From NCBI GenBank assembly GCA_013816615.1, contig JACDED010000028.1, positions 1-37,927 on the forward strand: a stretch of 37,927 nucleotides of DNA, written 5' to 3'. Of the stretch, positions 1,874 to 36,379 are shown in pieces (within the stretch, counting starts at the first letter, position 1; each line of letters starts with the position of its first letter). A model generated the notes under the pieces. That model was not told the DNA's origin, ran no database searches, and worked only from the letters and a program-made list of their open reading frames with translations. The stretch comes from Bacteroidota bacterium. GTDB taxonomy: Bacteria > Bacteroidota > Bacteroidia > B-17B0 > Aurantibacillaceae. A program made the translations under genes and the position numbers.

Positions 1874-1880
1874 AAAATTC

Positions 1881-2288: not shown

Positions 2289-2304
2289 ATTACTACATTT
2301 TAAA

Positions 2305-2751: not shown

Positions 2752-2767
2752 GATTGATAATTTGTTA

Positions 2768-2775
2768 CAAAACTA
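2768..2775 (-). promoter_or_regulatory. Candidate -7 element (TAGTTTTG) for the SnoaL-like operon
   Basis: On the minus strand this is TAGTTTTG, a match to the Bacteroidota primary-sigma -7 consensus TAnnTTTG, 16 bp before the start codon. It sits 33 bp downstream of the putative GlxA operator, nearly the same distance as in the paralogous locus at 13.7 kb. Confidence 0.45.
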
Positions 2776-2808
2776 CGTTAGTTTATTGGTGGGTGAAATG
2801 ATTAAAAA

Positions 2809-2833
2809 GACATAATTAGGGTCATTTAGGACA
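2809..2833 (-). promoter_or_regulatory. Putative GlxA/AraC-type operator, copy 1
   Basis: Read on the minus strand, two TGTC half-sites 21 bp apart bracket an ACCC core and end in TAATTATGTC. The same arrangement (TGTC, ACCC, TAATAATGTC) occurs at 13691-13720 between the other GlxA-type gene and its divergent neighbour. In both cases the motif reads toward the neighbour, not toward the regulator. A further TCACCCACC element at 2790-2798 resembles the core of the second copy. Confidence 0.5.
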
Positions 2834-2860
2834 GATGCTATTTTTAAGTAAATTTGCAAT

Positions 2861-3829
2861 GTGATCGTCTCTATTGTATTGCCAAGCCATTATCAATTAT
2901 CAAGTGTTGCAACGCTGTTAGAAGTGCTTGAATCTGTTAACAGCATTTACATACAACGAAATGGTGAGGTATATTTTAAAACACAGCTTATTCAGAGTGT
3001 TGAACAACAAGCTGAGAGTGGTTCTGAGTTTTATGGACACCTTATTAAATCAACCCGATCTAAAGTTTCATCAAACTTAGTTCTGATACCCGCTATAAAA
3101 AAGGAAAATATAGAAGCTGTAATTAAACAAAATCAATCACTTATACCCTGGCTACAAAATCAGTATAAAAATGGCGCTGAAATAGCCAGTTTTTGTACAG
3201 GAGCCTTTTTATTTGCAGAAACCGGCTTATTGAATGGTAGATTAGCAACCACACATTTAGATGTTTGCGCTAAATTTATTTTAGATTATCCCTTAGTGTT
3301 TGTAAAACCCGGAAGAACATTAACGGTAGATTGGAATTGTTATACAAGCGGTGGAGCAATTTCCTCATTTCATTTGCTCGTATTTTTAATTCAAAAATTT
3401 TGCGGTAATGAAATGGCTGTAAAGATCAGCAAAGCGTATTCAATTGAACTGGATCGATATGATCAAAGTTATTTTAGCACGTTTCGTCCAATATATTCGC
3501 ATAACGATGATCTGATCAAACAAATTCAAGAGCAGTTGGAAAACCATTATGCAACAATAAAAACAATAGAGGAAGTTACAAGAAAATATCCGGCAAGCCG
3601 AAGAAATTTAGTGAGGCGTTTTATTAAAGCAACCGGATTACCTCCGATAGAATATTTACAAAATTTAAGAGTAGAAAAAGCCAAGCAGTTACTTGAAAAC
3701 TCAGATCAAAGTGTTTCAGAGATCGTTACATAAACGGGCTATTCAGACCCTAAGTCATTTAGAAAGGTCTTTTTAAAACTGGTTGGAATTGCGCCTACTA
3801 ATTATAGAGATAAGTTCAAAATAAACTAA
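2861..3829 (+). pseudogene. GlxA-family AraC-type transcriptional regulator, interrupted by an in-frame stop
   Basis: GlxA/FtrA-type regulator with an N-terminal DJ-1/PfpI-like domain (about residues 1-185, with the IASFCTGAFLFA cysteine elbow) and a C-terminal AraC double helix-turn-helix. The frame is open from a GTG at 2861 to a TAA at 3731-3733, after ...QSVSEIVT. In the same frame it then continues with TGYSDPKSFRKVF...YRDKFKIN and a natural TAA at 3827-3829. The continuation is the second HTH of AraC proteins, so the stop is a point nonsense mutation removing the last 31 residues and most of one DNA-binding motif. Without the stop it would be 322 residues, close to the 327 of the intact paralogue at 12684. 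A sequencing error at one base cannot be excluded. Confidence 0.75.
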
Positions 3830-3857
3830 TTTATTTTTCTTATTTAACTTATGAAGA

Positions 3858-4310
3858 TCATTTGGAGGTCCTGGTGTAGATCAATTCCAGATCTTTTTCC
3901 CAGCGCTTTCCATTCTTCGACATTTCACCTTTTAATTCGATCGTCTTACCATTATCTTTAATTTTACCGGTAAAACGCTGTGAGAATTTTTTGTCTTTTC
4001 GCCACCATTTCCAAACATTTTTTTTGAGGGTAGATGTGTAGGTTCTTGATACTTTACGTTCATCAAAATAGATCATCGACATTTCTTTTTCAGAATCATC
4101 GGTTCCGAAAATAGCAATACCATCCGGAAAATCTTTATGATCGATATGCGTTTGCATTAAAAGAAAGGCACCTTTTTTGTGCCATTTAAAAGAGGCCTTA
4201 CCTTTTAAAACTACACCAGGAAGCATTGGATGTTTGCCAACGGTTTTCCACTTGCCAATTAAAACTTCGAGAGGTTTAAGTGCCGGATTTTTTGTTGCTG
4301 CTTTAGACAT
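3858..4310 (-). CDS. DUF1579-like beta-barrel protein
   Basis: About 150 residues, beginning at MSKAATKNPALKPLEVLIG. An upstream in-frame ATG at 4355 would add a non-conserved 15-residue tail. The sequence is a run of short strands with the signature GKWKTVGKHPMLPG, an aromatic FKWHKKGAFLLMQ strand, GIAIFGTDD and NVWKWWRKDKKFSQRF, ending in WEKDLELIYTR. This pattern belongs to small calycin/nitrobindin-like barrels often annotated as DUF1579 or hypothetical. No signal peptide, so cytosolic. Ligand unknown. It is convergent with the broken GlxA gene, 28 bp away. Confidence 0.65.
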   Translation of the reverse strand: MSKAATKNPALKPLEVLIGKWKTVGKHPMLPGVVLKGKASFKWHKKGAFLLMQTHIDHKDFPDGIAIFGTDDSEKEMSMIYFDERKVSRTYTSTLKKNVWKWWRKDKKFSQRFTGKIKDNGKTIELKGEMSKNGKRWEKDLELIYTRTSK

Positions 4311-4425
4311 GTTTATATTTTTAGAATATAATTTAAACATCAAAAGTGCTGCCAACCCAAAGTTATTTAAAAAGCGAATTTAGTTAGTATCAAGCTCTTA
4401 CGTAGTGCTTTCCAATTGCAAAAAT

Positions 4426-4566
4426 TTACCTCTGTTGTTTTGGGGCAAACAGGTCTGCAATGATCGTCATGGTTAGTGACCTTACGCCTCCAAATATTAC
4501 TGTAATTATTCTTGCCGCTAATAATGTATGCTAAGAATTTGATACTGCACAAAATAAATAAAGTGT
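4426..4566 (-). pseudogene. Relic of an MFS transporter (TM4 to loop region)
   Basis: The 308-bp gap between 4311 and 4618 has no intact gene. On the minus strand one frame reads TLYLFCAVSNS, a TAG, then HTLLAARIITVIFGGV and RSLTMTIIADLFAPKQQR, then TAA. The LLAARI..IFGG....MTIIADLFAPKQR pattern is the fourth transmembrane helix and following loop of AraJ/YdhP-like major facilitator proteins. The next residues RGK (normally after PKQ) occur in a neighbouring frame, which suggests an added frameshift. Only about 46 codons remain, so it cannot be functional. The identification rests on motif recall. Confidence 0.45.
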
Positions 4567-4618
4567 CTATTATAAATAACGCACAAAAAGCTTCCATTTT
4601 TGAAAGACTTTTTTATTT

Positions 4619-5548
4619 TTGCATTATGATAATACCGTACCAAAAAAAATTCTTTCTTTTGTATTTTTACTTTTGTTAGTTGCAGCATGCCATGATGAAA
4701 ATAAAACTTCACAGGATAAACAATTACATACTAACGATTTAATTAAAACCAACATGCCAGAAAACATTAATTTTAAAAATGGTTATGCCGAACTAAACGG
4801 CATTAAGTTGTATTACGAAATTTATGGCGAAGGAAAACCAGTGGTACTTATTCATGGTGGTGGTTCAACAATAGAAACAAATTATGGAAAAATAATTCCC
4901 TTTCTTGCTAAAAACAGGCAAATAATAGCGGTAGAATTGCAGGCGCATGGCCGCACAGCCGACAGAGATAAACCTTTATCGTTTGAACAGGATGCTGATG
5001 ATGTAGCGGCACTTTTAACTCATTTACAAATAAACAAAGCAGATATTTTAGGATTTAGCAATGGCGGACAAACTTCTATCGAAATTGCCTTGCGTCACCC
5101 GGAATTGATCAATAAATTAATTCTCTCTTCTACATTTTGTAAACATAATGCCGTGTTCCCACAATTTTGGGATATTTTTAAAAATGCAGATCTAAAGAAC
5201 ATGCCTCAAGCTTTAAAAGACGGATTTTTGAAAGTAAATAATGATTCGGCCGCCCTTTTAAAAATGTTTAACCGTGATGTAGAGCGCATGCAAAATTTTA
5301 AAGGCTGGAGCGATACACAAATAAAATCTATAACTGTACCAACATTAATTATGAATGGCACTAAAGATGTTGCAACTGTTGAACATGCAATGGAAATGCA
5401 TCGTTTAATTTCGAGCAGTGATCTTGTCATTCTTCCGGGAGTGCACGGACAGTATCTTGGCGAAGTAACCACATTGACAAATGGAAAATGGGAAGCGCAT
5501 TATGCGGTGGAAATTATAGAAGAGTTTTTGAACTCATCAAAACCCTAG
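4619..5548 (+). CDS. Alpha/beta hydrolase lipoprotein
   Basis: About 309 residues with a lipoprotein signal (KKILSFVFLLLLVAAC, lipid cysteine near residue 24) and an alpha/beta-hydrolase fold. The oxyanion segment is LIHGGGS, the nucleophile elbow GFSNGG (Ser147), the acid NGTKD (Asp250) and the histidine GVHGQY (His276). It is probably an envelope-anchored esterase or hydrolase of unknown substrate. The start is odd: the only in-frame start before the signal peptide is TTG at 4619. A good ATG at 4626 is one base out of frame and would be restored if the A8 run at 4642-4649 had nine A's (N-terminus MIIPYQKK). Slippage, a sequencing error or real TTG use are all possible. Confidence 0.75.
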   Translation: MHYDNTVPKKILSFVFLLLLVAACHDENKTSQDKQLHTNDLIKTNMPENINFKNGYAELNGIKLYYEIYGEGKPVVLIHGGGSTIETNYGKIIPFLAKNRQIIAVELQAHGRTADRDKPLSFEQDADDVAALLTHLQINKADILGFSNGGQTSIEIALRHPELINKLILSSTFCKHNAVFPQFWDIFKNADLKNMPQALKDGFLKVNNDSAALLKMFNRDVERMQNFKGWSDTQIKSITVPTLIMNGTKDVATVEHAMEMHRLISSSDLVILPGVHGQYLGEVTTLTNGKWEAHYAVEIIEEFLNSSKP

Positions 5549-5676
5549 ACCTTGTAAGCAATCTAAAATTTGATATTAACAAGCAGTGTAGTTTCTGTAG
5601 GCGAAATCAATTATAATGCCTATTTTTAATAATGCCGTTAAACCTTTTACTTTTACATCAGTCTAAAAACAAAAAC

Positions 5677-9118: not shown

Positions 9119-9652
9119 ATGAGTAATGAGGTCTCTTTTGAAAAATTAAAAATTGTAAACACTTCGGTAAACGATCTTGATTTTACTTTTTATTTATTTG
9201 AAAGTGCTATTGCGTATCAAAAAAAGAATGGTTATGAGTTATGGCCGCAGTTTAGTGAAGAGCTTATTAAAAATGAGATAAGGGAAAAACGGCATTGGAA
9301 GATCCTGGATGGAGAAATCATGGTTTGCATTTTTTCGGTAATGTATAGCGACCCTCTGATATGGCTTGAAAAGAATAACGATCCTTCTGTTTATCTTCAC
9401 CGCATTGCCATAAATCCTGAATTTAAAGGCAAGGGAATTATGAAACTTATAAAAACCTGGGCTATTGCACATGCAAAAGAAAACCATAAAAAGTATGTGC
9501 GAATGGATACATGGGGTAATAACGAAACACTAAGAAATTATTATATCAGCTGCGGCTTTAATTATATTGGCCAGCAACACCTTAAAGAAATAAAAGATCA
9601 GCCCGCTCATTACGGGGGTTTATTACTGAGCCTATTCGATATAAAAATTTAA
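9119..9652 (+). CDS. GNAT-family N-acetyltransferase
   Basis: 177 residues from MSNEVSFEKLK. The upstream TTG frame from 9077 is not needed. It shows GNAT order: an early helix (SAIAYQKKNGYELWPQF), strand 4 YLHRIAINPEFKGKGIMKLI (the pyrophosphate-binding R-x-x-G-x-G/A loop appears as KGKGIM), then AHAKENHKKYVRMDTWGNNETLRNYY and a CGFNYIGQ strand. It probably transfers an acetyl group from acetyl-CoA to an unknown amine. It stands alone between the outer-membrane relic and a lipoprotein gene. Confidence 0.8.
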   Translation: MSNEVSFEKLKIVNTSVNDLDFTFYLFESAIAYQKKNGYELWPQFSEELIKNEIREKRHWKILDGEIMVCIFSVMYSDPLIWLEKNNDPSVYLHRIAINPEFKGKGIMKLIKTWAIAHAKENHKKYVRMDTWGNNETLRNYYISCGFNYIGQQHLKEIKDQPAHYGGLLLSLFDIKI

Positions 9653-24239: not shown

Positions 24240-24430
24240 ACTCATCATTAATTTTTTTGGATTTTGGGCATGCCCCTTCGAGTCGGGCTTTCTCTCCCTC
24301 ATGCAAAAACCGAGTGCCGGGAATTTAGCCTCCCAATAGCTATCGGGAGTTTGAGCTCTTTTTTATTTCTTGAATGATGGGGGAAGAGATTCGTAGATCC
24401 CGCATTCTTCGGGATGACAAACCTCAGTGA
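24240..24430. repeat. Composite patch of dispersed palindromic repeats
   Basis: The gap 24122-24455 has no gene. It holds palindrome GGGCATGCCC (24266-24275), a near-perfect inverted repeat CTCCCAATAGCTATCGGGAG (24330-24349) and a hairpin ATCCCG(N7)CGGGAT (24397-24415) followed by GACAAAC. Its GC content is clearly above the flanks. From memory, elements like GGGCATGCCCC, CCCGATAGCTATCGGGA and CGGGATGACAAAC recur between genes in many Bacteroidota genomes, so this is probably a mix of interspersed repeats. That point is recall, not a search. Confidence 0.5.
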
Positions 24431-24455
24431 AACTTTGTGTCTTTTTGGATAAGAA

Positions 24456-24653
24456 TTAAACTAAAAATGATTTGCTTTCAGTTGTAACAGTCATTGTTGG
24501 TTGAGGACCTCTTTTGCTACGTACAACATCGCTTTGTTCAGTTTCAGTTTTTTTAGTTTCTTTAGAATCGTTATTGTTTTGGCCAAATGAAACATTACTT
24601 AATACTACTAAGATGGTGATGATGATGATTTTTAGTGTAGTTGAAGTTTTCAT
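24456..24653 (-). CDS. Short secreted peptide under sigma-54 control
   Basis: 65 residues: a basic start, a hydrophobic core (LKIIIITILVVLSNVSFG) and a probable cleavage after NVSFGQ, leaving about 40 polar residues (NNNDSKETKKTETEQSD, VVRSKRGPQPTMTVTTES). There is no known domain. The mature chain is charged and probably disordered, with an SKRGPQP centre that could be a processing or binding site. A textbook -24/-12 promoter lies 30-44 bp upstream of the start and an activator dyad is 60 bp above that, so its expression should depend on the neighbouring activator. It is the last transcription unit of the module. Confidence 0.7.
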   Translation of the reverse strand: MKTSTTLKIIIITILVVLSNVSFGQNNNDSKETKKTETEQSDVVRSKRGPQPTMTVTTESKSFLV

Positions 24654-24682
24654 GGCTGTTTGTGTTATCTGTATATACTAAA

Positions 24683-24697
24683 GCATATACTGTGCCA
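24683..24697 (-). promoter_or_regulatory. Sigma-54 (-24/-12) promoter of the secreted-peptide gene
   Basis: Minus strand TGGCACAGTATATGC: -24 GG at 24696-24695 and -12 GC at 24684-24683, the correct spacing. Matches TGGCAC and TGC of the consensus TGGCACGNNNNTTGC. The start codon is about 30 bp downstream. Confidence 0.8.
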
Positions 24698-24745
24698 CGA
24701 GCCAAACTCCTTTATTATCAATGGTTTCACGAAATTTTGATTTCT

Positions 24746-24776
24746 AAATATTCCATGTCACGGAAGGATTTTCCGG
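24746..24776 (-). promoter_or_regulatory. Activator site A (upstream activating sequence)
   Basis: Minus strand 24765-24746 reads TTCCGTGACATGGAATATTT, a TTCC(N6)GGAA-type dyad, with an extra GGAAA half-site at 24774-24770. It is centred 60 bp upstream of the -24 element and overlaps the stop codon of the receiver gene. Close match to sites B and C. Confidence 0.65.
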
Positions 24777-25204
24777 TTTTTGGAAATTAAACCGCAAAGA
24801 TCCTTCGCGTTTTTTTTATAGGTGGATTTACGATCTTCCAATTTCAAAAGGATAAGATTCGCCTTTTCTATCTCATCTTGCCCCTTGATAATATAATCAG
24901 CGATACCAACATTAGTACTATTTATTGTAGTTCTTATACCTTCAGGATCAATTACCATTACCACAAAAATTCCCGGGTTAAACAGTTTTATTCTTTTTAG
25001 AAGGTCTGAGCCTTGTGAATTATTAATGTTACTATCCAGGAAAACAATGTCTGGCTTTTCTGACAAGGCTTTAATACAATCAGTACCATTTACAAATGTA
25101 CTGATATCTGTATGACCAATATTTTTTAAATTTTGTTCGTATAGGTTAAGATAGAATAAACTGTTATCTACAATAAAGATCTTTAGTTTTTTATTTATTT
25201 TCAT
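24758..25204 (-). CDS. Stand-alone atypical response-regulator receiver
   Basis: 148 residues with one receiver domain and no output domain. LKIFIVDNSLFYLNLY carries Asp13 but Asn14 in place of the second acidic residue. PDIVFLDSNI gives the phospho-acceptor Asp57, and ADYIIKG the conserved Lys. The usual Thr/Ser of strand 4 falls in VVMVIDPEG, where none is present. The receiver is thus degenerate in Mg2+ binding and switching residues, although the acceptor Asp remains. It could act as a phosphate sink or adaptor for the adjacent hybrid kinase. It is its own transcription unit, with a sigma-54 promoter and site B upstream. Confidence 0.8.
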   Translation of the reverse strand: MKINKKLKIFIVDNSLFYLNLYEQNLKNIGHTDISTFVNGTDCIKALSEKPDIVFLDSNINNSQGSDLLKRIKLFNPGIFVVMVIDPEGIRTTINSTNVGIADYIIKGQDEIEKANLILLKLEDRKSTYKKNAKDLCGLISKNRKILP

Positions 25205-25230: not shown

Positions 25231-25245
25231 GCTATAACTATGCCA
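25231..25245 (-). promoter_or_regulatory. Sigma-54 (-24/-12) promoter of the receiver gene
   Basis: Minus strand TGGCATAGTTATAGC: -24 GG at 25244-25243, -12 GC at 25232-25231. Two deviations from the ideal (T for C at TGGCAC, A for T before GC), but spacing and both invariant dinucleotides are right. Start codon about 27 bp downstream. Confidence 0.7.
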
Positions 25246-25291: not shown

Positions 25292-25320
25292 AAATTTTCC
25301 ACGATACGGAAAAATTTCCA
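25292..25320 (-). promoter_or_regulatory. Activator site B (upstream activating sequence)
   Basis: Minus strand 25311-25292 reads TTCCGTATCGTGGAAAATTT, with an extra GGAAA half-site at 25319-25315. Centred 58 bp upstream of the -24 element of the receiver promoter, almost the same distance as site A. Confidence 0.65.
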
Positions 25321-25383: not shown

Positions 25384-28221
25384 TTAAATAAGCTCTAAAG
25401 GCAATTCTTCAATCACTTTTGAAAGATGAGTATTAAAATGCTGCATAAGTGCAGTAAGTTCAGTCTCCGGGATCTTGTTTTTAGCGAGACCTTCAAGTTC
25501 TCTTATTTCTTTCTTTAAAGAAATAATATCCATATTATCAATACTTGGTTTTAATTTATGTGCAATTTTATGCATTGTATCGAGATCATTTACCTCGTAA
25601 GCCGAGTTAATTTGTTGTAACGAGATCTTTGCCTGCTCAACAAAAAGCGAGATCATCTTTTTAATAAATCCTTTATCACCCCTGCTCAATTCTTTTAATT
25701 TATTAAGATCGTATGACTTTAAAGTGACTGAAGTTGCAGTACTATCAATACTTTCTGGCCCTTGAACAAAGTTAGCGTTCGTATATTTAGAAATGAGTTT
25801 TAAAAGTTCAGCTTCTTCAAAAGGCTTTGTAATATAATCGTTCATGCCCGCAGATTTACATTTTTCAACCTCGCTCTTAAACGCATTTGCAGTTAAAGCA
25901 ATTATTGGTGTATCAATTCTCAATTCCGTCCTTATTTTTTCAGTTGCCTCCAAGCCATCCATTTCAGGCATTTGAATATCCATTAAAATAATATCATATT
26001 TATTTAATTTTAATTTTTCAATTGCTTCCAGGCCATTCACTGCTTCATCAACAGAACAAGTATAATATTTAAAAGTATTTTGAGCAACGAGCCTGTTTAA
26101 TTCATTATCCTCAACAAGCAGTATTTTAAGGCCATTTAAAGAAATAGTTTCATTGCTTTCATTTTTATCATTTACCTTATTTATTTCACTTTTTTTAAGC
26201 GTAGTTATTACTTTAAAAGTAGTACCTGAATTTTTTTCGCTCTCAACTTCAATTACACCACCCATAAGCTGTATCAATTCATATGTAATAGCCAATCCTA
26301 AACCGGTGCCACCGTACTTACGCGAAACCGACTTATCTTCTTGTGAGAATTTTTTAAATATGTTTTTTAAATATTTCTCATCGATACCAACACCGGTATC
26401 AGAAACTGCAATTTGTATCCTTTGTCCATCAACAGTATCGTTCAACAAACTGCATTTAACAGTGATTCCGCCTTGCGCTGTAAATTTAACTGCATTACCA
26501 ACCAGGTTAAGTAATACCTGTTCAATACGAAGTGGATCACCGATCATTGCCTGGTGAATATCTTCTGAGAATTCTGATCTTAAATAGATTCCTTTTTCTT
26601 TGGCACGTGACGACATTATTGTAAGAATATTTTTAACAGAATGTTCAAGTTCAAAATGTTCATCTTCTAAAGTTAACTCACCTGCTTCTATCTTAGAAAT
26701 ATCTAAAACGTTATTAATAATGGAGAGCAAATGTTTAGAAGCTATTGAGCTTTTTTCAACATACATTTTTTGTTCGGTATTTAGTTTTTCTTTACCTAAC
26801 TCTCTTATCATACCAATAATAGCATTTAAAGGGGTTCTTATTTCATGGCTCATATTTGCCAGGAAAGATTCTTTAGCCTTTGAAGCCAATTCTGCTTTTA
26901 TTTTCGCTGCCTCAAGATCTGTTTCTAATTTCTTTTGATCCGTAATATCAAAATGTATTCCAATTGAACCAATAAACTCACCTGAATCATTAAAATTTGG
27001 AGCGCCGCTAACTGTCCACCATCTTATTTCTCCGTTTTTATTTTTAACGGGCATTTGGTACATATCAGAAATACTTTCGGATCTCAATTTTTTCTTTTCC
27101 TTTACAAGATCAAGATTCTCTTTTAAAACAAAAATATCCGTCGCTTTTTTACCGATCAATTCTTCCTGCGAAAAGCCCGACATGGCACAAAATCCTTGGT
27201 TAACATGTAATATTTCTTCAGTTGTACTTACCTCAATTAAACCCAAATTCATGTTAGTAATTATATTTCTATATTTTTCTTCTTGTTTTTTGAGTAAACC
27301 TTCAAAGAGTTTTTGTTTTGTAATATCAATTGCCATTGACGTTAATTCATAATCTTCTGAGTTTACCTGCGCGTATGAGAGTTGAACGCTTTGCCCTAAC
27401 CAAATTTCTTGTCCTTTTTTTGTAATGATCGGAAATTCAAAATAAGTAGAAGCAATTCTTTTTTGCACCTGGTTCAAATAAAATTTCACGGCCTTCAATT
27501 TAAAATCGGGCCTGATTAATTTTGAGAAAGACATTTTATACAATTCTTCTTTTGAATAACCTGTAATTCTTTCTGCTATTGGGTTTACAAATAAAAAAAA
27601 GCCTTTGTTATTTGTTTTATAAATAATATCTGTTGCGTGTTCAATAATGTTCCTGTATTTTTCCTCCGAAAGCTTTAATTCCTTTTGTATCTTAATTTTC
27701 TCTGTTATATCTGTATATCTCCAAAGCGTACCCTTATATGTGTCGTTAATATAAATAGGTATATAATTTCTTTCAAGACATTTTCCATTCTTCATTTCAA
27801 GGACCTGGTCAAGTTTTGGTTCTTTAAAATGGTGTAGTCTATTAATCTCAGCAACATACGTTACCGGTTTTTTAAATAGATCTTTAGCGTTTTCTGCTGA
27901 ATTAGAAAAACCGTTACCGATCATTTCTTTTGGAGTAAAATCTGTAGAAAAAATATCACAATACATTTGATTTGCAAATATTACATTCCGATCCTCGTCT
28001 TCAGCCAATATACCTGCTTGTAACTTGGAAAAAAGCGTGGTTAACAATTGATTTGTTTTTACAAGGTCATTTTCTTTCTCAACATGCTGCGCAACCTCAA
28101 GATCTTTTTCATTAAAATAATTATTAATTGCGTTAAAAAAAACATGAAGCGAAGGCTCGCTTTGCTGTTCTTTTGACAAACAATTTACCACAATGGCATT
28201 CAATTCTTTATGCAATTCCAT
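25384..28221 (-). CDS. Hybrid sensor histidine kinase (PAS x3, HisKA, HATPase, receiver, Hpt)
   Basis: 945 residues with no transmembrane segment or signal peptide, so cytosolic. PAS1 about 57-175, PAS2 about 185-305 and PAS3 about 312-435 are followed by HisKA with SHEIRTPLNAIIGM (His459), then HATPase with N-box VLLNLVGNAVKF, DTGVGID and GGTGLGLAI. The receiver (about 698-810) has VEDN and DIILMDIQMPEMDG (Asp748), and the Hpt ends with KIAHKLKPS (His888). This supports a His-Asp-His phosphorelay. It starts 16 bp after the sigma-54 activator gene, so they are cotranscribed. The final Asp acceptor may be the activator, the stand-alone receiver, or both. Confidence 0.9.
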   Translation of the reverse strand: MELHKELNAIVVNCLSKEQQSEPSLHVFFNAINNYFNEKDLEVAQHVEKENDLVKTNQLLTTLFSKLQAGILAEDEDRNVIFANQMYCDIFSTDFTPKEMIGNGFSNSAENAKDLFKKPVTYVAEINRLHHFKEPKLDQVLEMKNGKCLERNYIPIYINDTYKGTLWRYTDITEKIKIQKELKLSEEKYRNIIEHATDIIYKTNNKGFFLFVNPIAERITGYSKEELYKMSFSKLIRPDFKLKAVKFYLNQVQKRIASTYFEFPIITKKGQEIWLGQSVQLSYAQVNSEDYELTSMAIDITKQKLFEGLLKKQEEKYRNIITNMNLGLIEVSTTEEILHVNQGFCAMSGFSQEELIGKKATDIFVLKENLDLVKEKKKLRSESISDMYQMPVKNKNGEIRWWTVSGAPNFNDSGEFIGSIGIHFDITDQKKLETDLEAAKIKAELASKAKESFLANMSHEIRTPLNAIIGMIRELGKEKLNTEQKMYVEKSSIASKHLLSIINNVLDISKIEAGELTLEDEHFELEHSVKNILTIMSSRAKEKGIYLRSEFSEDIHQAMIGDPLRIEQVLLNLVGNAVKFTAQGGITVKCSLLNDTVDGQRIQIAVSDTGVGIDEKYLKNIFKKFSQEDKSVSRKYGGTGLGLAITYELIQLMGGVIEVESEKNSGTTFKVITTLKKSEINKVNDKNESNETISLNGLKILLVEDNELNRLVAQNTFKYYTCSVDEAVNGLEAIEKLKLNKYDIILMDIQMPEMDGLEATEKIRTELRIDTPIIALTANAFKSEVEKCKSAGMNDYITKPFEEAELLKLISKYTNANFVQGPESIDSTATSVTLKSYDLNKLKELSRGDKGFIKKMISLFVEQAKISLQQINSAYEVNDLDTMHKIAHKLKPSIDNMDIISLKKEIRELEGLAKNKIPETELTALMQHFNTHLSKVIEELPLELI

Positions 28222-29590: not shown

Positions 29591-29666
29591 AATTATATTT
29601 TTTTAAAAATTCCATTAATTAGATAATTCCAGAATTCGAAATAAAGGTAATTGGTATACAAAGGGA

Positions 29667-29686
29667 AAATTTTCCAAAAAATGGAA
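29667..29686 (-). promoter_or_regulatory. Activator site C upstream of the activator gene
   Basis: Minus strand 29686-29667 reads TTCCATTTTTTGGAAAATTT, matching sites A and B in TTCC(N6)GGAA spacing and the trailing AATTT. It overlaps a 12-bp palindrome GGAAAATTTTCC (29664-29675). It lies about 77-96 bp upstream of the activator start. With no sigma-54 promoter visible here, it suggests autoregulation from another promoter. Confidence 0.55.
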
Positions 29687-29782: not shown

Positions 29783-32206
29783 TTATTTACCAAATTTTAT
29801 ACGTTGATACTCTTCTTCGCTTACCGAACGGCTCTTGTAAGTATTAGCTTTAAGCTTGCCAAATTTGTAATTAAGGGCCAGCATAAAATAATGCGTATTA
29901 ACCCTGGACCGATAAGCGATATTATAAACCGGGATGTTACTTTCGCCGGCCATGATATACTGACTCAAGATATCATTAGCCACAAAACGACAGGTTAATT
30001 TATCTTTAAAGAATGTTTTTTTCAAATTTATATTTAACATCGAAAAAGGTTTTGAAACAAAGATTCCATCTACCCCGGCCGAAGTATATTCATAAGTTAG
30101 CTCTATAGAGAACCATTTTTTAAACCTGAACTCATCATACAAATAAATACTAAAAGTAGGTTTGTTATTTTGTACAACAATGCTGGCTTGCTCATAACTG
30201 AATGTATTTAAAAAATAACCAAAATAATTAGCGGTGGTCCACCACTCCAGCTCGTATGGAATTGTAACACCAAAAGAAAACGTCTCGCTTTTATTTAGAT
30301 TTTTTGTTGTGGCTGTAAACGCTTCGGTACTATCGTTTAATTTATCTACAACCAAACGTAAAGCGCCATTTGTTTTACTATAACCAAAAGTAAGATTTGC
30401 TTCTTTCATATAAACCAAAGAAGCTTCAAATGAATTTGTATACTCAGGCAATAAATATGGATTACCTCTAAAAGAAGAAAGAGAATCGATGTAATTAATA
30501 AAAGGATCAAGATCCTGAAAGGAAGGACGATTGATACGGCTTGAAAGTGTAAGCGATGTAATAAGATCTTTTGTAAAATCATATCCAAAATAAGCGCTGG
30601 GAAAAAAATTAATATATTGCCTGTTAATGATCTTTTGTGCTTTTGAATAACCTTCTGAATTTGTAAACTCTGCTCTACCACCAATGCGGGTGTTTATTTT
30701 CTTCTTTTTAAATTTAAGCTCACTATAAGCAGCGGCTATATTCTCGTTAAATTCAAAACTATTTAAATAGGAAGGATCAGAGACCCAATTACCAGCGTTA
30801 TCTTTATTTTCGAATTTAATATCGCTAAGCTTGGCAATATTAGATTCTTTTACCCCACTTTGGAGCTTCCATTTTTTATTAAATACTTTTATTAGATCAA
30901 CCTGGGCACTAATTATTTTAATATCGTTCTTATTTGAATTTCTTTTTTCTTCTTCAAAGATCTGATTGTTGTATTTTGTTTCAACATTTATTTTACCGGT
31001 TTGACCAATGATATAATTGCCATACTGCATGGTGGCAAATAATTCCGTACCAAGTGTATCAAATTTCCTGGAATAGTTGGCGTTTATACCGTTATTTATT
31101 TGTAAAGGAAGATTTTTCGTGTTTGTATGTAAACCATACGCCTCATTGCCATTTAATAAAATACTATTATTATTATCCGAAACATTATTGCGCGAAATAT
31201 AAAAACCGTTGTATTGTAAACCCAATGTAGTTATTGAATCGGGCCTGTAATTTAAACCGGCACGATAATAATGATTGTTTGAATAATTTTGCACATCGTA
31301 CAAATAGTTGTTCATTTCAATATTTGCACTGTCGTTTAGTTTATATGTGCGCTTGTATTCATCTGAATTCCACTGTTTGCCTGTATTAAAACCATAACTA
31401 AAATTGGTACTGATCTTTTTTCGTGTATAATTAAAACGCAAACCTGTGTATGTAAAAAGATAAGTTCCCTGGAGAAAATTTTGTATTACATTACCATTAT
31501 AACCCTGCAAATTATTTTTTATAGTAATAAGGTTGATCACAGCCCTGCCCGCCGCATCATATTTGGCAGAAGGATTATTAATAATTTCGATATTTTTAAT
31601 TTCACTTGATGGAAGTGATTTAAGAATATCAATGGAAGAGATCAACAAACCATCCAGGTAAATAAGGGCTGTACCTTTACCAAAAACAGTAACATTATCA
31701 TTATTGTTCACTAAAACTCCGGGCGATCGTCTTAATACATCCAAAGCAGTTCCAGCAGCATTTAAACCGGTTCCTTCTACATTTACTTTTACCTTTTCGC
31801 CATCCATTTCAAACAAAGGAATTTTAGCGGTAACGGTTATTTCGTTTAATGTATTGTTATCTTTTAAAATTATTTCGCCAATATCAATAACTGAATCTGA
31901 ATTTGTTCTGTTTATCAAAATAAAATGATCACTATAACCAACAGCGTTTATTTTTAAAAGCACCGAATCACGATCGATCCCTTCTAATTTAAAAATACCG
32001 TTCTCAAAAGGCACACCTTTATAAATAGAAGAGTCGTTAGGGTGCAAAGCAATGGCGTTACCAAATTCTATTGCCTTATTTTGATCAAAAAAAACTTTTC
32101 CTGTTATTGTAAAAGGCGTTGTTTGAGAAAATAAAGCAGAAGTGAAAAACATTAAGATCAATACCGATCTTAACTTATAAAATTTCGTTACTCTTTTTTC
32201 GGACAT
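29783..32206 (-). CDS. Outer-membrane beta-barrel protein with carboxypeptidase-regulatory domain (TonB-receptor-like)
   Basis: 807 residues. Signal peptide about 1-28. Residues about 30-112 form a CarboxypepD_reg-like beta-sandwich (FTITGKVFFDQNKAIEFGNAIAL), then a plug-like domain (LNAAGTALDVLRRSPGVLVNNN ... GKGTALIYLDGLLISSIDILKSLPSSEIKNIEIINNPSAKYDA) and a 22-strand-type barrel ending ALNYKFGK. The plug segment is the signature of the OMP_b-brl_3 family of TonB-dependent-receptor relatives in Bacteroidota. It probably imports or binds a large ligand; no SusD partner is next to it. Separated from the sigma-54 module by a terminator. Confidence 0.8.
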   Translation of the reverse strand: MSEKRVTKFYKLRSVLILMFFTSALFSQTTPFTITGKVFFDQNKAIEFGNAIALHPNDSSIYKGVPFENGIFKLEGIDRDSVLLKINAVGYSDHFILINRTNSDSVIDIGEIILKDNNTLNEITVTAKIPLFEMDGEKVKVNVEGTGLNAAGTALDVLRRSPGVLVNNNDNVTVFGKGTALIYLDGLLISSIDILKSLPSSEIKNIEIINNPSAKYDAAGRAVINLITIKNNLQGYNGNVIQNFLQGTYLFTYTGLRFNYTRKKISTNFSYGFNTGKQWNSDEYKRTYKLNDSANIEMNNYLYDVQNYSNNHYYRAGLNYRPDSITTLGLQYNGFYISRNNVSDNNNSILLNGNEAYGLHTNTKNLPLQINNGINANYSRKFDTLGTELFATMQYGNYIIGQTGKINVETKYNNQIFEEEKRNSNKNDIKIISAQVDLIKVFNKKWKLQSGVKESNIAKLSDIKFENKDNAGNWVSDPSYLNSFEFNENIAAAYSELKFKKKKINTRIGGRAEFTNSEGYSKAQKIINRQYINFFPSAYFGYDFTKDLITSLTLSSRINRPSFQDLDPFINYIDSLSSFRGNPYLLPEYTNSFEASLVYMKEANLTFGYSKTNGALRLVVDKLNDSTEAFTATTKNLNKSETFSFGVTIPYELEWWTTANYFGYFLNTFSYEQASIVVQNNKPTFSIYLYDEFRFKKWFSIELTYEYTSAGVDGIFVSKPFSMLNINLKKTFFKDKLTCRFVANDILSQYIMAGESNIPVYNIAYRSRVNTHYFMLALNYKFGKLKANTYKSRSVSEEEYQRIKFGK

Positions 32207-32252: not shown

Positions 32253-33008
32253 TTAGCTAATTCCCCTGCTTTTTTTGATGCTTTCATAAGCATCCTGGAT
32301 CTTCTGGAATTTTTCTTTGGCACCTTTCTGAAACTCATCACCCATATGAATTACCTTATCAGGATGATAACGTACTGCCATCTGACGGTAGGCCTTTTTG
32401 ATCTCTTCTTCAGTAGCCGATGGTTCAATTCCTAACATATGATAATCAGAATTCACATCCCTGTAAAACATATTTTTAAGAGTTTCAAAATCAGAAGAAG
32501 GTATTTGCAATAAAGCTGCAATATGTTTTAAAACATTTATCTCAGCATCTGCAACATGTCCATCTGCCTTTGCAATACCAAAAAGATAATGCATTAACTG
32601 AATACGAACTTCAAGCGTAGTTCGCATATTAATATCGTTACAGATCTCATCCAAAGGAATTGAAGGAGCGTCTAAAAAATGTTTTAAGGTTTGTAAATGT
32701 GTAGCAGAATATTGCGGACCAAATTGTTGTGCAAAAAAAGCTTTTATATATTCCAGCTCTACTTTTAAAGCTTTTCCATCGGCTTTCATTACTGTGGCCG
32801 AAAGGGCCATTAACATGGTTGCAAAATCTTCGTGTGGGCGCGCTGCATGTTGCTGGTAATAATCAAAAACACTTTGACCCTTACCTGTTTTTGCCTTAGC
32901 TGCCATAAAATTATCTATGAAAGAACCAATTACAAAGCCAAGAAAGGCCCCCATAAAATGTTTGGTAAAAAAGAAAAAGCCTAATGCGGCAAAAATAACC
33001 TTAAACAA
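32253..33008 (-). CDS. TerB/DnaJ-domain membrane co-chaperone (DjlA-like)
   Basis: 251 residues. A hydrophobic N-terminus (GFFFFTKHFMGAFLGFVIGSFIDNF) anchors it. Residues about 55-165 are a TerB-like helical domain (EDFATMLMALSATVMKADGKALKVELEYIKAFF; FGIAKADGHVADAEINVLKHIA). Residues about 182-250 are a J domain with the invariant HPD in YRQMAVRYHPDKV. This is the DjlA architecture: membrane-bound DnaK co-chaperone. The start appears to be TTG. A TATATTTG -7 box lies 28-35 bp upstream on the minus strand. Confidence 0.85.
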   Translation of the reverse strand: MFKVIFAALGFFFFTKHFMGAFLGFVIGSFIDNFMAAKAKTGKGQSVFDYYQQHAARPHEDFATMLMALSATVMKADGKALKVELEYIKAFFAQQFGPQYSATHLQTLKHFLDAPSIPLDEICNDINMRTTLEVRIQLMHYLFGIAKADGHVADAEINVLKHIAALLQIPSSDFETLKNMFYRDVNSDYHMLGIEPSATEEEIKKAYRQMAVRYHPDKVIHMGDEFQKGAKEKFQKIQDAYESIKKSRGIS

Positions 33009-33009
33009 C

Positions 33010-33063
33010 TTAAAAGATTTAATTTTGAATAGTACACAAATATACTGCTATTAAATCTTTTAA
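33010..33063 (-). promoter_or_regulatory. Promoter of the DjlA-like gene flanked by a 13-bp perfect inverted repeat
   Basis: TTAAAAGATTTAA (33010-33022) and TTAAATCTTTTAA (33051-33063) are perfect inverted copies with 28 bp between them. The minus strand has TATATTTG (33044-33037), matching the -7 consensus, inside the interval. The dyad thus brackets the promoter and could be an operator. Confidence 0.5.
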
Positions 33064-33101
33064 TCCAAAAATATAACTCTAAATTTTTTGAGGAAAGGCG
33101 C

Positions 33102-33509
33102 TCAATCCTGAAGCTGGAAGATGCGCTTTAAATACTGTACTAATTTATCGATCTTTGAAGGCTTTTCAATGTGATCAAAAGCACCATCATGCAGGGTGTC
33201 GTATATGATTTTTTCGGTAATGGTAGTAGAATAGATTATAACGGGCACTTCGGCAACACTGGCTGTTTTCTTAAGCTCAACCAAACATTCGGCGCCGCTC
33301 ATGATAGGCATATTAAGATCTAAAAAAATAAAATCGGGTATGCGTTCACATTTTTTTAATTGTTCAATAGCATCGGGCCCACTGTGAGCATAGCCAATCG
33401 TTATATCCGGTGATATTTTATTTACCGCTATCTCAAAGATCTTCCTGTCATCTTCATCATCATCGATCAGAAAGCAATAGATATCTTTTTTATGAGGAAG
33501 TTTTTCCAT
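33102..33509 (-). CDS. Stand-alone response-regulator receiver
   Basis: 135 residues from MEKLPHKKDIYCFLIDDDEDD (longer in-frame start at 33578 would overlap the upstream region and is not needed). Receiver only: acidic DDD, acceptor in FIFLDLNMPIMSG, Ser/Thr in VIIYSTT, and Lys in HIEKPSKIDKLVQYL. All key residues are intact, unlike the receiver at 24758. It lies 78 bp downstream of a TPR membrane protein on the same strand and probably forms one unit with it. Confidence 0.85.
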   Translation of the reverse strand: MEKLPHKKDIYCFLIDDDEDDRKIFEIAVNKISPDITIGYAHSGPDAIEQLKKCERIPDFIFLDLNMPIMSGAECLVELKKTASVAEVPVIIYSTTITEKIIYDTLHDGAFDHIEKPSKIDKLVQYLKRIFQLQD

Positions 33510-33587
33510 ACATAATAAGAACAGCGAAACTTCAAAAAAGTTTACCTTTTTATTGAAATGAATTGAACTGCTAACCAATAAGGTATA

Positions 33588-34919
33588 TTATTTTTTATCC
33601 CTTATGTTGGTTAATACCCGCTCAATATACTTTTCTTTTGGCAATAGTGATTCCTGTATCCTACGGGCGTATTTGATACTATCCATTATTTCCGTCTGCT
33701 TTTCGTCTACCAGGTGTTTTTGACGTGAGATCTCCTCTTTTTGCGCTTGCGAAACTTTATAGCGTTTATAAAGTATTGCCATAAATATGATAATAACGCC
33801 CACAATTATCAATAAAAAATATTTTACCGTATTGCTTCTGCTGATCTGTGCGGTTTGTTTTTCGATCCTTGATGCCTGCACCAGGCTATCGCGTAAATGA
33901 GATTTTGAGAACTCATTCATCATATCTTTCTGTTCAATTTGCGCAGCTATCTCTTTTGCAAAGATCTCTAAGTTTAAATGTCGTAAAAGTTTATGATACT
34001 TATTTGAAAGCTCTATTTTGTTTAACTGTTCGTAGTTATCGGCCAGATCATTATACAATCTTTTAAGGCCGGTATTATAAACACTGGTATCTATAAACAT
34101 AAGTGCCTTTTCTAAATTCAATAAAGCTTTATCATATTTTTTAATGGAATAAAAAGCGGATGCAATATTAACATAGCCGTCGGCCTTTTCGGTATTACTA
34201 CCGTGTTTTAATTTTATTGCTAATGCTTTTTCGAAATAAGGAAGCGCTTCACTAACTTTATCCTGTACATTTAAATTGCTTCCAATATTATTATATGCGT
34301 ATGCAATACTTATTGAATCGCGCCTTTTTTCACTTATTTCTAAAGCTTTTTTAAACCAATATAATCCTTCCTGGTATTTTTCCTGGCAAGCACAAGCACT
34401 TCCGAGATTATTATAAATATTGGTTAACGAAGTTTCATCTATCGGGTTTGCTCTGTAAAGTTGAAGCGCTAGCCTAAAACATTTTTCTGACTTATTGCAT
34501 TCTGTATTATAATAATAGGCATTACCCATATTTAAGATAGCGCTTATCTGGCCAAGCCTATGCCCGTTTTTTTTAAACAGCCTTAATGCTTTGTCGAAAT
34601 TATCGATCGCCTTTGAATAATCACTTACATAAATATTTAAAAGGCCTAAGCGATTATAAACAATACCCTGGATCCTTAAATTATTACCATTTTTTGCTCT
34701 TAGCAAAGCTGAATCGGCATATTGGAAGCTTAAAACAATTTGTTTTGAATTGATAAACTCGTCAGCAAGATCCATACACATTTTAGAATAGCTGGTATCG
34801 TTTGCTGTTGGAAGTTTTTTTAGTAAACTATCAATTATTAACTGGCTTTGAGCAATTGAAACTTTGGGAAAAAGGAAGATCAATAAAATGAAAGATATTT
34901 TAAAGAAGCGAATTATCAT
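33588..34919 (-). CDS. TPR membrane protein with SpoIIE-type linker but no catalytic domain
   Basis: 443 residues. Signal peptide about 1-23, then about seven TPR motifs (for example GIVYNRLGLLNIYVSDYSKAIDNFDKALRLFK; AYNNIGSNLNVQDKVSEALPYFEKAL), one transmembrane helix near residue 366-386 (VKYFLLIIVGVIIIFMAILY) and a cytoplasmic coiled tail. The tail has the sequence KQTEIMDSIKYARRIQESLLPKEKYIERVL. In many Bacteroidota proteins this stretch leads into a SpoIIE-type phosphatase domain; here the gene stops at RDKK. It may act as a periplasmic sensor that recruits a separate cytoplasmic partner, perhaps the adjacent receiver. Confidence 0.75.
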   Translation of the reverse strand: MIIRFFKISFILLIFLFPKVSIAQSQLIIDSLLKKLPTANDTSYSKMCMDLADEFINSKQIVLSFQYADSALLRAKNGNNLRIQGIVYNRLGLLNIYVSDYSKAIDNFDKALRLFKKNGHRLGQISAILNMGNAYYYNTECNKSEKCFRLALQLYRANPIDETSLTNIYNNLGSACACQEKYQEGLYWFKKALEISEKRRDSISIAYAYNNIGSNLNVQDKVSEALPYFEKALAIKLKHGSNTEKADGYVNIASAFYSIKKYDKALLNLEKALMFIDTSVYNTGLKRLYNDLADNYEQLNKIELSNKYHKLLRHLNLEIFAKEIAAQIEQKDMMNEFSKSHLRDSLVQASRIEKQTAQISRSNTVKYFLLIIVGVIIIFMAILYKRYKVSQAQKEEISRQKHLVDEKQTEIMDSIKYARRIQESLLPKEKYIERVLTNIRDKK

Positions 34920-34981
34920 TAAGTAATTATACGCAATTAAACGCGAAGATACAATTACGGAATTGCGGTAGAGTTATAAAC

Positions 34982-36379
34982 TTAAACTTTTACTTTTTTC
35001 CAATTACCTCTTTTAAAATACAACCATGCAACTATTGCAATAAGTGTTTCGGCCACCGGTATGGCAATAAAAGCGCCTGTTGCTTTCATATCCAATGTTC
35101 TTGATAAAAAATAAGCTAACGGCACCTGGAACAACCAAAAACAAATAAAATATATTATGGTGGGTGTTTTGGTATCGCCTGCTCCATTCAATGCTTGTGT
35201 CATTACCATACCAATACCATAAAACATAAAACCCGATCCTATGATCCGCAAAGCTTGCACTCCATATACAATAACGGCTTCATCTTGTGTAAAAATATGA
35301 ATGATGGGTTTTGGAAGTAAAATAAATAATACTGCAACAAACGCCATGAAGATGGCATTGTATTTTGTTGTAAGCATTACACTTTTTTCAGCTCTATCTG
35401 TTTCTTTTGCGCCTAAATTTTGTCCTACTAAAGTGGCGGCTGCATTACTTAAGCCCCATGCCGGAAGAATAAAGAACACTACATTTCGCATAGCTATCTG
35501 GTAGCCTGCCGAGGCAGTCGTTCCACCAGTCTCTGCTACAATACGGGCCAATACTATCCAACTGCCACTGGCAATAATAAATTGAAATGTAGCGGGCCAG
35601 GCAACTTTTATAACTGATTTAATTATTTCGGGATCAATTTTAAAACTGCTTGCATGTATCTTTAAAATGCCACTTCCTTTAAATAAATGATAACATTGAT
35701 AAAGCACACCAGTGCTTCTGCCAATTACTGTAGCTATTGCTGCGCCTTTTAAACCAAAAAAATGAATGAATATCGGACAAAGAATAATATTTATAATACT
35801 GGCTATCCATAAGCTTTTCATAGCCATTGCAGCATTACCCGCTCCACGAAAAATACCATTGATGAGAAACAAAAGCATAATTGCCATACTACCACCAAGC
35901 ATTATGCGTGCAAATACAGTTCCATCTGCAACTACTTCTTTACTTGCACCCATTAATGCTAATATATCGCCGGCAAAGATCACTCCCGGAATACTAACAA
36001 TTATTGTAGCTATTAATGCAATTATAAGTGATTGTGCGCCCGCATGTGCTGCCGCTTCCGGATCCTTTTCACCAATTCTTCTTGCAACAATAGCTGTTGC
36101 ACCTGTACTAAGGCCAATTGCAATTGAATAAAGAATTGTAATTACTGATTCGGTAAGACCAACAGTAGCAATTGCATTTTCACCAAGCTTGCCAACAAAG
36201 AACATATCTACAACAGCAAAAACGCTTTCAAGACTAAGCTCTAATATCATTGGAATTGCCAATAAAAAAACAGCCCTGCGAATGCTTCCAACTGTATAAT
36301 CCTGCTCTTTCCCATTAAGCGATTCTTTGATCGCATTAATAAAATTAGTTGTAGTACTTGTTTTAGCAGAGGCAGACAT
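34982..36379 (-). CDS. MATE-family multidrug efflux transporter
   Basis: 465 residues, normal length for MATE, with about 12 hydrophobic helices in two repeated halves. N-terminal half: LAIPMILELSLESVFAVVDMFFVGKLGENAIATVGLTE and GATAIVARRIGEKDPEAAAHAGAQ. Second half: VAWPATFQFIIASGSWIVLARI and ALNGAGDTKTP. The N-terminal 30 residues are a hydrophilic extension. It is likely a Na+- or H+-coupled exporter of cationic drugs or metabolites. It has its own promoter region and no close partner gene. Confidence 0.9.
   Translation of the reverse strand: MSASAKTSTTTNFINAIKESLNGKEQDYTVGSIRRAVFLLAIPMILELSLESVFAVVDMFFVGKLGENAIATVGLTESVITILYSIAIGLSTGATAIVARRIGEKDPEAAAHAGAQSLIIALIATIIVSIPGVIFAGDILALMGASKEVVADGTVFARIMLGGSMAIMLLFLINGIFRGAGNAAMAMKSLWIASIINIILCPIFIHFFGLKGAAIATVIGRSTGVLYQCYHLFKGSGILKIHASSFKIDPEIIKSVIKVAWPATFQFIIASGSWIVLARIVAETGGTTASAGYQIAMRNVVFFILPAWGLSNAAATLVGQNLGAKETDRAEKSVMLTTKYNAIFMAFVAVLFILLPKPIIHIFTQDEAVIVYGVQALRIIGSGFMFYGIGMVMTQALNGAGDTKTPTIIYFICFWLFQVPLAYFLSRTLDMKATGAFIAIPVAETLIAIVAWLYFKRGNWKKVKV

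What the first reader, a model, noticed from the sequence alone, without database searches (positions are those of the whole stretch)
24456..24653. A 65-residue secreted peptide of unknown family as the output of a dedicated two-component relay
The signal peptide is clear and the mature 40 residues are polar and low-complexity with an SKRGPQP centre. A kinase, activator and dedicated promoter for one short secreted peptide suggests a signal, an envelope-stress mediator or a toxin-like factor.
Basis: inference. Interest (0 to 1): 0.65.

Follow-up and report, generated by a model that had tools for sequence, protein, structure and literature searches.

The report
Small secreted peptide under sigma-54 switch
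A real 65-residue exported protein is one of several interchangeable small exported products switched on by a conserved bacterial control circuit that, in related bacteria, is wired to genes for making slime-like surface polysaccharide.

Summary
The ORF at 24456-24653 (-) is a real gene: two, probably three, copies in this genome and two in one congener, under purifying selection, with a signal-peptide-like start followed by Gln. Its promoter is a sigma-54-type -24/-12 element, 53 bp below two tandem dyads (TTCCRN5YGGAA) that I take as binding sites of the adjacent NtrC-type activator. The promoter is not dedicated to this peptide. The same module precedes the receiver gene at 24758-25204, the unlinked peptide copies and, more weakly, a large T9SS protein. 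Of 40 genomes of the genus, the 12 whose activator is at least 69% identical are the 12 with the best sites. At the syntenic output position other species carry different small exported proteins (111-115, 131 aa). In other Bacteroidota the module precedes EPS glycosyltransferases, single-domain receivers and FIST or H-NOX genes, there sometimes with a poorer promoter match. Best reading: an EPS/biofilm-type sigma-54 circuit whose linked polysaccharide output was replaced, in one clade, by small exported, probably matrix or surface, proteins; the 65-mer is the version of two species. It works like PrsK/PrsR-PEP-CTERM but fails that family's tests. Circuit well supported; peptide function inferred.

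The parts
24456..24653 (-). 65-aa exported peptide gene (24-residue putative signal peptide, mature Q25-V65)
   Evidence: ORF; copies; alignment; dN/dS
24683..24697 (-). sigma-54-type -24/-12 promoter TGGCACAGTATATGC of the peptide gene
   Evidence: regex; genome pattern with reversed-pattern control; model R1 hit (site was in the training set)
24710..24721 (-). conserved TTGATAATAAAG between enhancer and promoter (possible DNA-bending site; inference only)
   Evidence: alignment A2
24751..24765 (-). proximal enhancer dyad TTCCGTGACATGGAA, 53 bp upstream of the -24 element
   Evidence: conserved in A1 and A2; overlaps the last codons of the receiver gene
24771..24785 (-). distal enhancer dyad TTCCAAAAACCGGAA, 20 bp from the proximal one
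24758..25204 (-). single-domain response regulator
   Evidence: Pfam Response_reg 46.9 bits; 72% match in G007, 45-50% in G021, G006 and G012
25231..25245 (-). sigma-54-like promoter TGGCATAGTTATAGC of the receiver gene
   Evidence: gap to dyad 51 bp; R1 E=5.2e-13 (in training set)
25297..25311 (-). enhancer dyad TTCCGTATCGTGGAA of the receiver gene (a GGAA half-site lies 20 bp upstream)
25384..28221 (-). hybrid histidine kinase, PAS-HisKA-HATPase-REC-Hpt; no hydrophobic stretch of transmembrane strength
   Evidence: Pfam (Hpt 22.1 bits, cut-off 24.6); hydropathy maximum 1.43 over 19 residues
28238..29590 (-). NtrC-type sigma-54 activator (REC, AAA+, probable HTH), presumed to bind the dyads
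   Evidence: Sigma54_activat 235 bits; orthologs; tree
29610..29686 (-). dyads (TTCCATTTTTTGGAA 29672-29686; TTTCGAATTCTGGAA 29627-29641; GGAA half-site ending 29610) just before the activator start: possible autoregulation
   Evidence: similar dyads before the activator in G007 (L027:4103-4180); R1 finds only a weak match here (E=0.0035)
29783..32206 (-). outer-membrane beta-barrel (OMP_b-brl_3) gene upstream of the activator; gene order kept in G007
   Evidence: Pfam; L027 ORF 1559-4009

Best explanation
The peptide is one output of a sigma-54-dependent phosphorelay. Proposed mechanism: the PAS-containing hybrid kinase (REC and probable Hpt, no transmembrane segment seen) phosphorylates the receiver of the NtrC-type activator. 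Activator oligomers bind the two tandem TTCCRN5YGGAA dyads 53 bp upstream of the -24/-12 promoter and switch on RpoN polymerase. The same sites feed back on the single-domain receiver gene and possibly on the activator gene. The product leaves by Sec, is cut before Gln25 and acts outside the inner membrane. In relatives the same activator/enhancer pair stands before EPS glycosyltransferases, large secreted proteins and other small exported proteins. So the 65-mer is most likely a small cell-surface or matrix protein (biofilm or aggregate consolidation) that occupies an output slot of an EPS-type circuit. Shown by computation: gene, copies, selection, enhancer+promoter, co-occurrence with the activator, swapped outputs. 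Inferred: phosphotransfer, binding, export, matrix role.
For: Coding and constrained. Enhancer+promoter kept at unlinked copies, where the neighbouring receiver gene is absent. Genome pattern searches with reversed control 0. Model R1 (16 sites from 7 genomes) over 40 genomes of the genus: 32 of the 33 hits at E<=5.5e-5 lie in the 12 genomes whose activator is >=69% identical. Among the 33 genomes not used for training, the 5 with such an activator have the 5 best R1 scores (1 in 237,336 by chance; the 69% line was drawn after looking). Swapped outputs at the same place between kinase and the HrpB-like helicase. EPS genes, FIST, H-NOX and receivers behind the module in other Bacteroidota. Two RpoN genes in this genome. 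Published parallel in which an RpoN-dependent exported protein turns soluble EPS into bound EPS and flocs: PMC9850573 (passages). sigma-54 as controller of the bacterial exterior: PMC3162934 (passages). sigma-54 promoters before exported proteins of unknown function in Flavobacterium: PMC9723704 (passages).
Against: No experiment exists; the ten nearest activator relatives in the named collection are all MAGs (L133-L142). No binding, transcription or export was shown. This genome has no DUF1972 glycosyltransferase, so co-regulation with EPS is not shown in it; it has two Poly_export genes on C41 and C27, contigs without any R1 hit at E<=0.05. DUF1972 proteins without a site also exist in the EPS-linked genomes, so loss of the linked EPS cluster is an inference. 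The activator at 66% (G020) and 63% (G026) goes without a strong site; counting them, 5 of 7 rather than 5 of 5. One site (G023, E=5.5e-5) has no activator, close to G010's 4.0e-5. In distant loci the dyads are clearer than the promoter: it is imperfect before one H-NOX gene (L167) and not recognisable before the other (L156). The small-output activators group with only 94/83 support. The looser pattern gave 1 control hit and several chance-looking ones. The peptide is in 2 of 150 genomes and has no recognisable matrix motif.
Confidence: 0.6

Rival explanations
1. The peptide is a diffusible signal (pheromone) whose level is sensed back by the kinase or by neighbours.
For: Short, polar, probably secreted, multicopy and near-identical within a genome; encoded next to a kinase.
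Against: The kinase has PAS domains, no extracellular sensor domain found and no transmembrane segment by hydropathy. Other species have unrelated 111-143-aa proteins behind the same promoter, and kinase-linked sensors in relatives are FIST or H-NOX. Dedicated export peptidases were not searched for.
Confidence: 0.12
2. The peptide is an envelope-stress or periplasmic accessory factor.
For: In Flavobacterium psychrophilum sigma-54 promoters drive envelope-stress and exported-protein genes (PMC9723704, passages). An OMP gene and a DnaJ-like gene (named by eye) flank the system.
Against: Site targets in relatives are mainly EPS genes, receivers, secreted proteins and NO-sensor genes. On this contig R1 finds no site before the OMP or DnaJ-like gene at E<=0.05.
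Confidence: 0.15
3. The peptide is a toxin-like or antibacterial factor.
For: Small, probably secreted, lineage-specific, apparently tandem copies in the recA neighbourhood (recA named by eye).
Against: No constant immunity-like partner is seen beside the copies. Composition is polar with charge +0.8. No family hit above cut-off; toxin libraries and PADLOC were not run.
Confidence: 0.07
4. The transcript acts as a regulatory RNA and the ORF is incidental.
For: The promoter and, in part, the early leader are conserved beyond the ORF.
Against: dN/dS 0.096-0.169 between species, with differences mostly at third codon positions; replacement genes are also under coding constraint.
Confidence: 0.03

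Closest known systems
PrsK/PrsR-RpoN regulation of PEP-CTERM proteins (PMC1569441; PMC9850573)
   Same: NtrC-family two-component activator; enhancer, sometimes repeated, some 50-60 bp above a -24/-12 promoter; single-gene exported targets; link to EPS genes. The activator aligns to the PrsR model TIGR02915 over residues 6-447 (359.3 bits).
   Different: Below the PrsR cut-off (502.6); NtrC scores as high (360.2). The enhancer is TTCCRN5YGGAA, not the motif ending TTTACA. No PEP-CTERM tail. PrsK is a transmembrane kinase; this kinase shows no transmembrane stretch, and PrsK is not among the best 25 of its 158 NCBIfam matches.
NosP/FIST- and H-NOX-linked hybrid kinases (NahK/ErcS type)
   Same: PAS-HisKA-REC-Hpt plan and a sub-threshold match to the NahK/ErcS model (173 of 400 bits). 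Orthologous loci carry FIST beside the activator (G012, G017, G030, G010) or HNOB (G009).
   Different: No FIST gene at the focal locus (the only FIST in this genome is on C70); output goes through a sigma-54 activator; no NO response was tested.
sigma-54 (SM4) promoters of Flavobacterium psychrophilum (PMC9723704)
   Same: Bacteroidota sigma-54 promoters in front of exported proteins of unknown function.
   Different: No enhancer site or cognate activator is assigned in the passages read.
Bacteroidetes Q-rule exported proteins (PMC5837995; title and start of abstract seen in listing)
   Same: Gln immediately after the putative signal peptide in the 65-mer and, by eye, in the 111-143-aa replacement proteins.
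   Different: A general export property, not a family; the 145-aa product of G011 looks like a lipoprotein instead.

Membership tests
sigma-54-dependent NtrC-type two-component system | REC + AAA+ sigma-54 interaction domain (GAFTGA) + HTH activator beside a histidine kinase | tested here: met
   PF00158 235 bits, PF00072 57.5 bits, GAFTGA in sequence; HTH only as a sub-threshold HTH_17 match
sigma-54-dependent NtrC-type two-component system | -24/-12 promoter with upstream enhancer at target genes, and rpoN in the genome | tested here: met
   two Sigma54_DBD proteins
PrsK/PrsR PEP-CTERM regulation | Activator above TIGR02915 cut-off | tested here: not met
   359.3 bits against 502.6
PrsK/PrsR PEP-CTERM regulation | Enhancer motif 1 with 3' end TTTACA | tested here: not met
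   motif as described in PMC1569441 section 7 (logo not seen) against A2
PrsK/PrsR PEP-CTERM regulation | Target protein with C-terminal PEP-CTERM sorting domain | tested here: not met
   peptide ends ESKSFLV; no Pfam/NCBIfam hit above cut-off
NosP/H-NOX nitric-oxide two-component system | FIST (or H-NOX) gene adjacent to the kinase | tested here: not met
   only FIST is on C70; HNOB was not searched genome-wide in this genome, and neither gene next to the kinase is one
NosP/H-NOX nitric-oxide two-component system | Kinase activity altered by NO | not testable with these tools
   needs biochemistry
T9SS cargo | C-terminal sorting domain (Por_Secre_tail or kin) | tested here: not met
   no hit in the 65-mer
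Sec/SPI exported Q-rule protein | Signal peptide followed by Gln | tested here: inconclusive
   pattern present in 4 of 4 full copies and hydrophobic core; no signal-peptide predictor run; processing not testable
Bacteriocin or toxin family | Match to a known toxin profile and an immunity partner | tested here: inconclusive
   no Pfam/NCBIfam hit above cut-off; PADLOC and toxin libraries not run; no constant neighbour at unlinked copies

The most novel reading that the evidence does not exclude
A phylum-wide Bacteroidota switch (FIST or H-NOX nitric-oxide sensor, hybrid kinase, sigma-54 activator, TTCCRN5YGGAA enhancer) governs extracellular matrix. In one clade its polysaccharide output has been exchanged, with promoter and enhancer retained, for a rotating set of small exported matrix proteins, of which the 65-mer cassette is one. 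Its copies are homogenised from the -24 box to the stop codon.
Probability: 0.35. Interest if true: 0.75.

Novelty: new variant of a known kind. Interest (0 to 1): 0.58.

Why it matters
It gives an orphan two-component system in uncultured Bacteroidota a defined enhancer, promoter and regulon that can be read off genomes. It ties several unannotated families of small exported proteins to one circuit. If the matrix reading is right, it is a second sigma-54 route, besides PEP-CTERM, by which bacteria set aggregate or floc cohesion, with possible nitric-oxide input. It is also a clear case in which a promoter and its regulator persist while the gene product is exchanged.

Tried and rejected
Regulatory RNA: rejected on dN/dS. 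Spurious ORF: rejected on conservation. One-peptide dedicated relay: rejected. Homology of the 65-mer to the 111-aa family: hhalign probability 6.9%, not supported. Structure of the replacement families: AlphaFold models poor (mean pLDDT 36.2 for the 141-aa family; 57.0 for the 111-aa family), so no fold search was made. Loss of all EPS export in this clade: rejected, 12 of 12 genomes keep Poly_export genes. PrsR membership: rejected. Literature: eight searches listed no paper that I recognised as describing this enhancer or regulon; only listings and passages were seen, and most subscription journals are not held.

In one search, 42 of the 84 rows were taken. Dropped rows had E above 6.9e-4, or were mirror or partial hits without the promoter end; two kept rows (L156:9355, L136:5703) also lack that end. 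Of the 42, by BLAST to query proteins, Pfam or eye: receivers 12, DUF1972-type 4, family-2 glycosyltransferase-like 4 (Pfam run on one), peptide/111-aa family 4, 125-aa family 1, HNOB 2, FIST 1, other exported-looking 3, unassigned 4 (one of them, L180, is a 404-aa DUF1972-type protein), no ORF found 7 (for one of these, L182, one search shows a 145-aa receiver-like protein).

Full report
OBSERVATION. The ORF 24456-24653 (-) encodes 65 residues from an ATG. The first 24 residues have a charged start, a hydrophobic core and a short polar end, followed by Gln25. That is the pattern of the Bacteroidetes Q-rule (PMC5837995; title and start of abstract seen). No signal-peptide predictor was run. 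The mature 41 residues are polar (T7 S5 K5 E4), pI 8.4, charge +0.8. Pfam gives no family and NCBIfam none above cut-off.

COPIES AND SELECTION. This genome (4.68 Mb, 246 contigs) holds a second copy at C100:26432-26626 (97%) and a 28-residue fragment at the start of C191. A further, near-identical promoter begins on C100 436 bp after that of the second copy, and the contig ends 10 bp after it, so a tandem array broken by the assembler is likely, with the C191 fragment its last copy (inference). Congener G007 has two copies at 82%. 2 of 150 genomes searched have the gene; the next match has E=0.002. Five of the six pairs of the four full copies give dN/dS 0.096-0.169 (NG86; the YN00 runs failed for four of six pairs); the sixth pair, the two copies in this genome, has no synonymous change. 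Those two copies are 196/198 identical in the CDS but only 58/88 from the distal dyad to the -24 box, which points to recent copying or gene conversion of a promoter-plus-gene cassette.

PROMOTER AND ENHANCER. Aligning the four loci showed conservation running about 130 bp upstream of the ATG, into the 3' end of the neighbouring receiver gene, even at copies where that gene is absent. The conserved parts are two dyads TTCCRN5YGGAA 20 bp apart, a TTGATAATAAAG core, and TGGCACN7GC 53 bp below the second dyad; the G007 copy beside the kinase has GA in place of GC. A strict pattern in this genome and G007 hit the peptide gene and the receiver gene here, and the recA-side peptide gene plus one further place in G007; the reversed control hit nothing. 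A double-dyad pattern over 100 genomes hit 5 genomes, all of this genus, 8 sites, control 0. A looser pattern gave 13 hits in the two genomes against 1 in the control, several of them plainly chance.

REGULON MODEL. Sixteen sites from seven genomes (A2) gave the sequence-only model R1. Over the 40 held genomes of the genus it gave 33 hits at E<=5.5e-5. 32 lie in 12 genomes; the other is in G023. The activator search gave exactly these 12 genomes at >=69% identity. Sixteen of the 32 were training sites, so the fair test is the 33 genomes not used for training: the five that have the activator are the five with the best R1 scores (1/237,336). The 69% line was drawn after seeing the data; G020 (66%) and G026 (63%) have the activator and no strong site. 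By my count the 32 sites precede: this peptide 5 (one with its gene beyond a contig end), the 111-115/131-aa family 8, the 141-143-aa family 3, a 145-aa lipoprotein-like protein 1, the receiver gene or its operon 7 (in G034 through a broken-looking upstream gene) and an eighth probable at a contig end, EPS-cluster genes 4 (two DUF1972 glycosyltransferases; two related by eye to an 805-aa protein of the G030 cluster), long secreted-looking frames 2 (one the 1629-aa T9SS protein of this genome, E=1.7e-6, about 250 bp above its likely start), and a 62-aa frame 1.

SAME PLACE, DIFFERENT PRODUCT. Gene order activator - hybrid kinase - (receiver, 125-142-aa protein) - small exported protein - HrpB-like helicase holds in G007, G021 and G006; G019 has it without receiver and 142-aa gene; G012 has a further gene between the small protein and the helicase; the G034 contig ends early. 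The names HrpB, recA and DnaJ-like are mine from reading the sequences. At the output position G000 and G007 have the 65-mer; G019, G021, G006 and G034 a 111-115-aa protein; G012 a 131-aa protein that aligns with it (43% to the first row). The 65-mer and the 111-aa family are not detectably related. The 111-114- and 141-aa families are under constraint (dN/dS 0.09-0.13, 5 pairs). In the activator tree the seven species with these outputs group (94/83), with G009 and G011 next and the EPS-linked ones outside.

WIDER MODULE. R1 or a regex places the module before DUF1972-type EPS glycosyltransferases (Chitinophagaceae, Ferruginibacter, Saprospiraceae, Neolewinella, Balneolaceae), single-domain receivers (several Flavobacterium), family-2 glycosyltransferases (Algoriphagus), a FIST protein (Lutimonas) and H-NOX proteins (Algoriphagus vanfongensis and a MAG). 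In these distant loci the dyads are clearer than the promoter: before the H-NOX gene of L167 the -12 end is imperfect and in L156 none is recognisable. In this genus FIST sits between activator and kinase in G012 and G017 and beside the activator in G030 and G010; H-NOX lies between them in G009. A receiver homolog adjoins a Poly_export gene in G030 and G010. DUF1972 is missing from 7 of 7 genomes with the 65-mer or 111-131-aa outputs and present in the other 5, G011 with its lipoprotein output included, but only G030 and G010 have one with a site, and 12 of 12 keep Poly_export genes. The statement that the linked EPS gene was lost is therefore limited to this gene and cluster. This genome's single FIST gene, followed by its own PAS kinase, lies on C70.

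MECHANISM. From these families: kinase autophosphorylation, transfer through REC/Hpt to the activator, enhancer binding, RpoN activation (two RpoN genes). The receiver, whose gene is itself a target, may act as phosphate sink or connector (inference). Dyads just before the activator ATG here and in G007 suggest autoregulation. The matrix role of the peptide is an inference from the company the module keeps and from a tested parallel: in Aquincola an RpoN-dependent exported PEP-CTERM protein, overexpressed, rescues flocs in an rpoN1 mutant and shifts EPS from soluble to bound (PMC9850573, passages).

COMPARISON. Closest in working is PrsK/PrsR-PEP-CTERM (PMC1569441: passages and section 7 read). 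The activator aligns full-length to the PrsR model but below its cut-off, and equally well to NtrC; the enhancer differs; no PEP-CTERM tail. Not a member. FIST/H-NOX kinases are the likely relatives of the input side; the NosP and H-NOX papers were seen only in listings. A 2025 survey of sigma-54 regulons (PMC12316311, passages) does not use the word exopolysaccharide in its main text.

VERDICT. Gene and circuit real; one-peptide relay not supported; new variant of a known kind; peptide function inferred.

Noticed in passing
window 24444-24697 versus L024:9888-10141: The two peptide copies of this genome are nearly identical from the -24 box to the stop (CDS 196/198) but only 58/88 identical above it: a homogenised promoter-gene cassette.
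   Followed up: partly
window 24250-24420: Intergenic stretch below the peptide gene shares short pieces with places on C100 (L024:571-598, 648-674, 9584-9610): probably a dispersed repeat of this genome.
   Followed up: no
L024:891-927: 37 bp at 89% identity to the 3' end of the peptide gene, far from the full copy on the same contig: perhaps a remnant.
   Followed up: no
L025:680-779 and 785-5674 (C191): R1 site (E=1.7e-6) above a 1629-aa protein with PKD and T9SS sorting domain, next to the third peptide fragment.
   Followed up: partly
window 32253-36379: MATE-type, TPR, small receiver and DnaJ-like genes (named by eye) keep their place beside the system in G019, G021 and G006.
   Followed up: partly
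L255:1420-3573 (C70): FIST (NosP-like) gene followed by a PAS kinase elsewhere in this genome; could feed the relay in trans.
   Followed up: no
L058:1097-1471, L128:10595-11023, L129:10840-11268, L121:8122-8547: 125-142-aa exported-looking protein next to the receiver gene; only a weak sub-threshold YfiM lipoprotein match for the first.
   Followed up: partly
G000:C130 and C226: Two RpoN genes in this genome (contamination estimate 2.99%, so one could be foreign).
   Followed up: no
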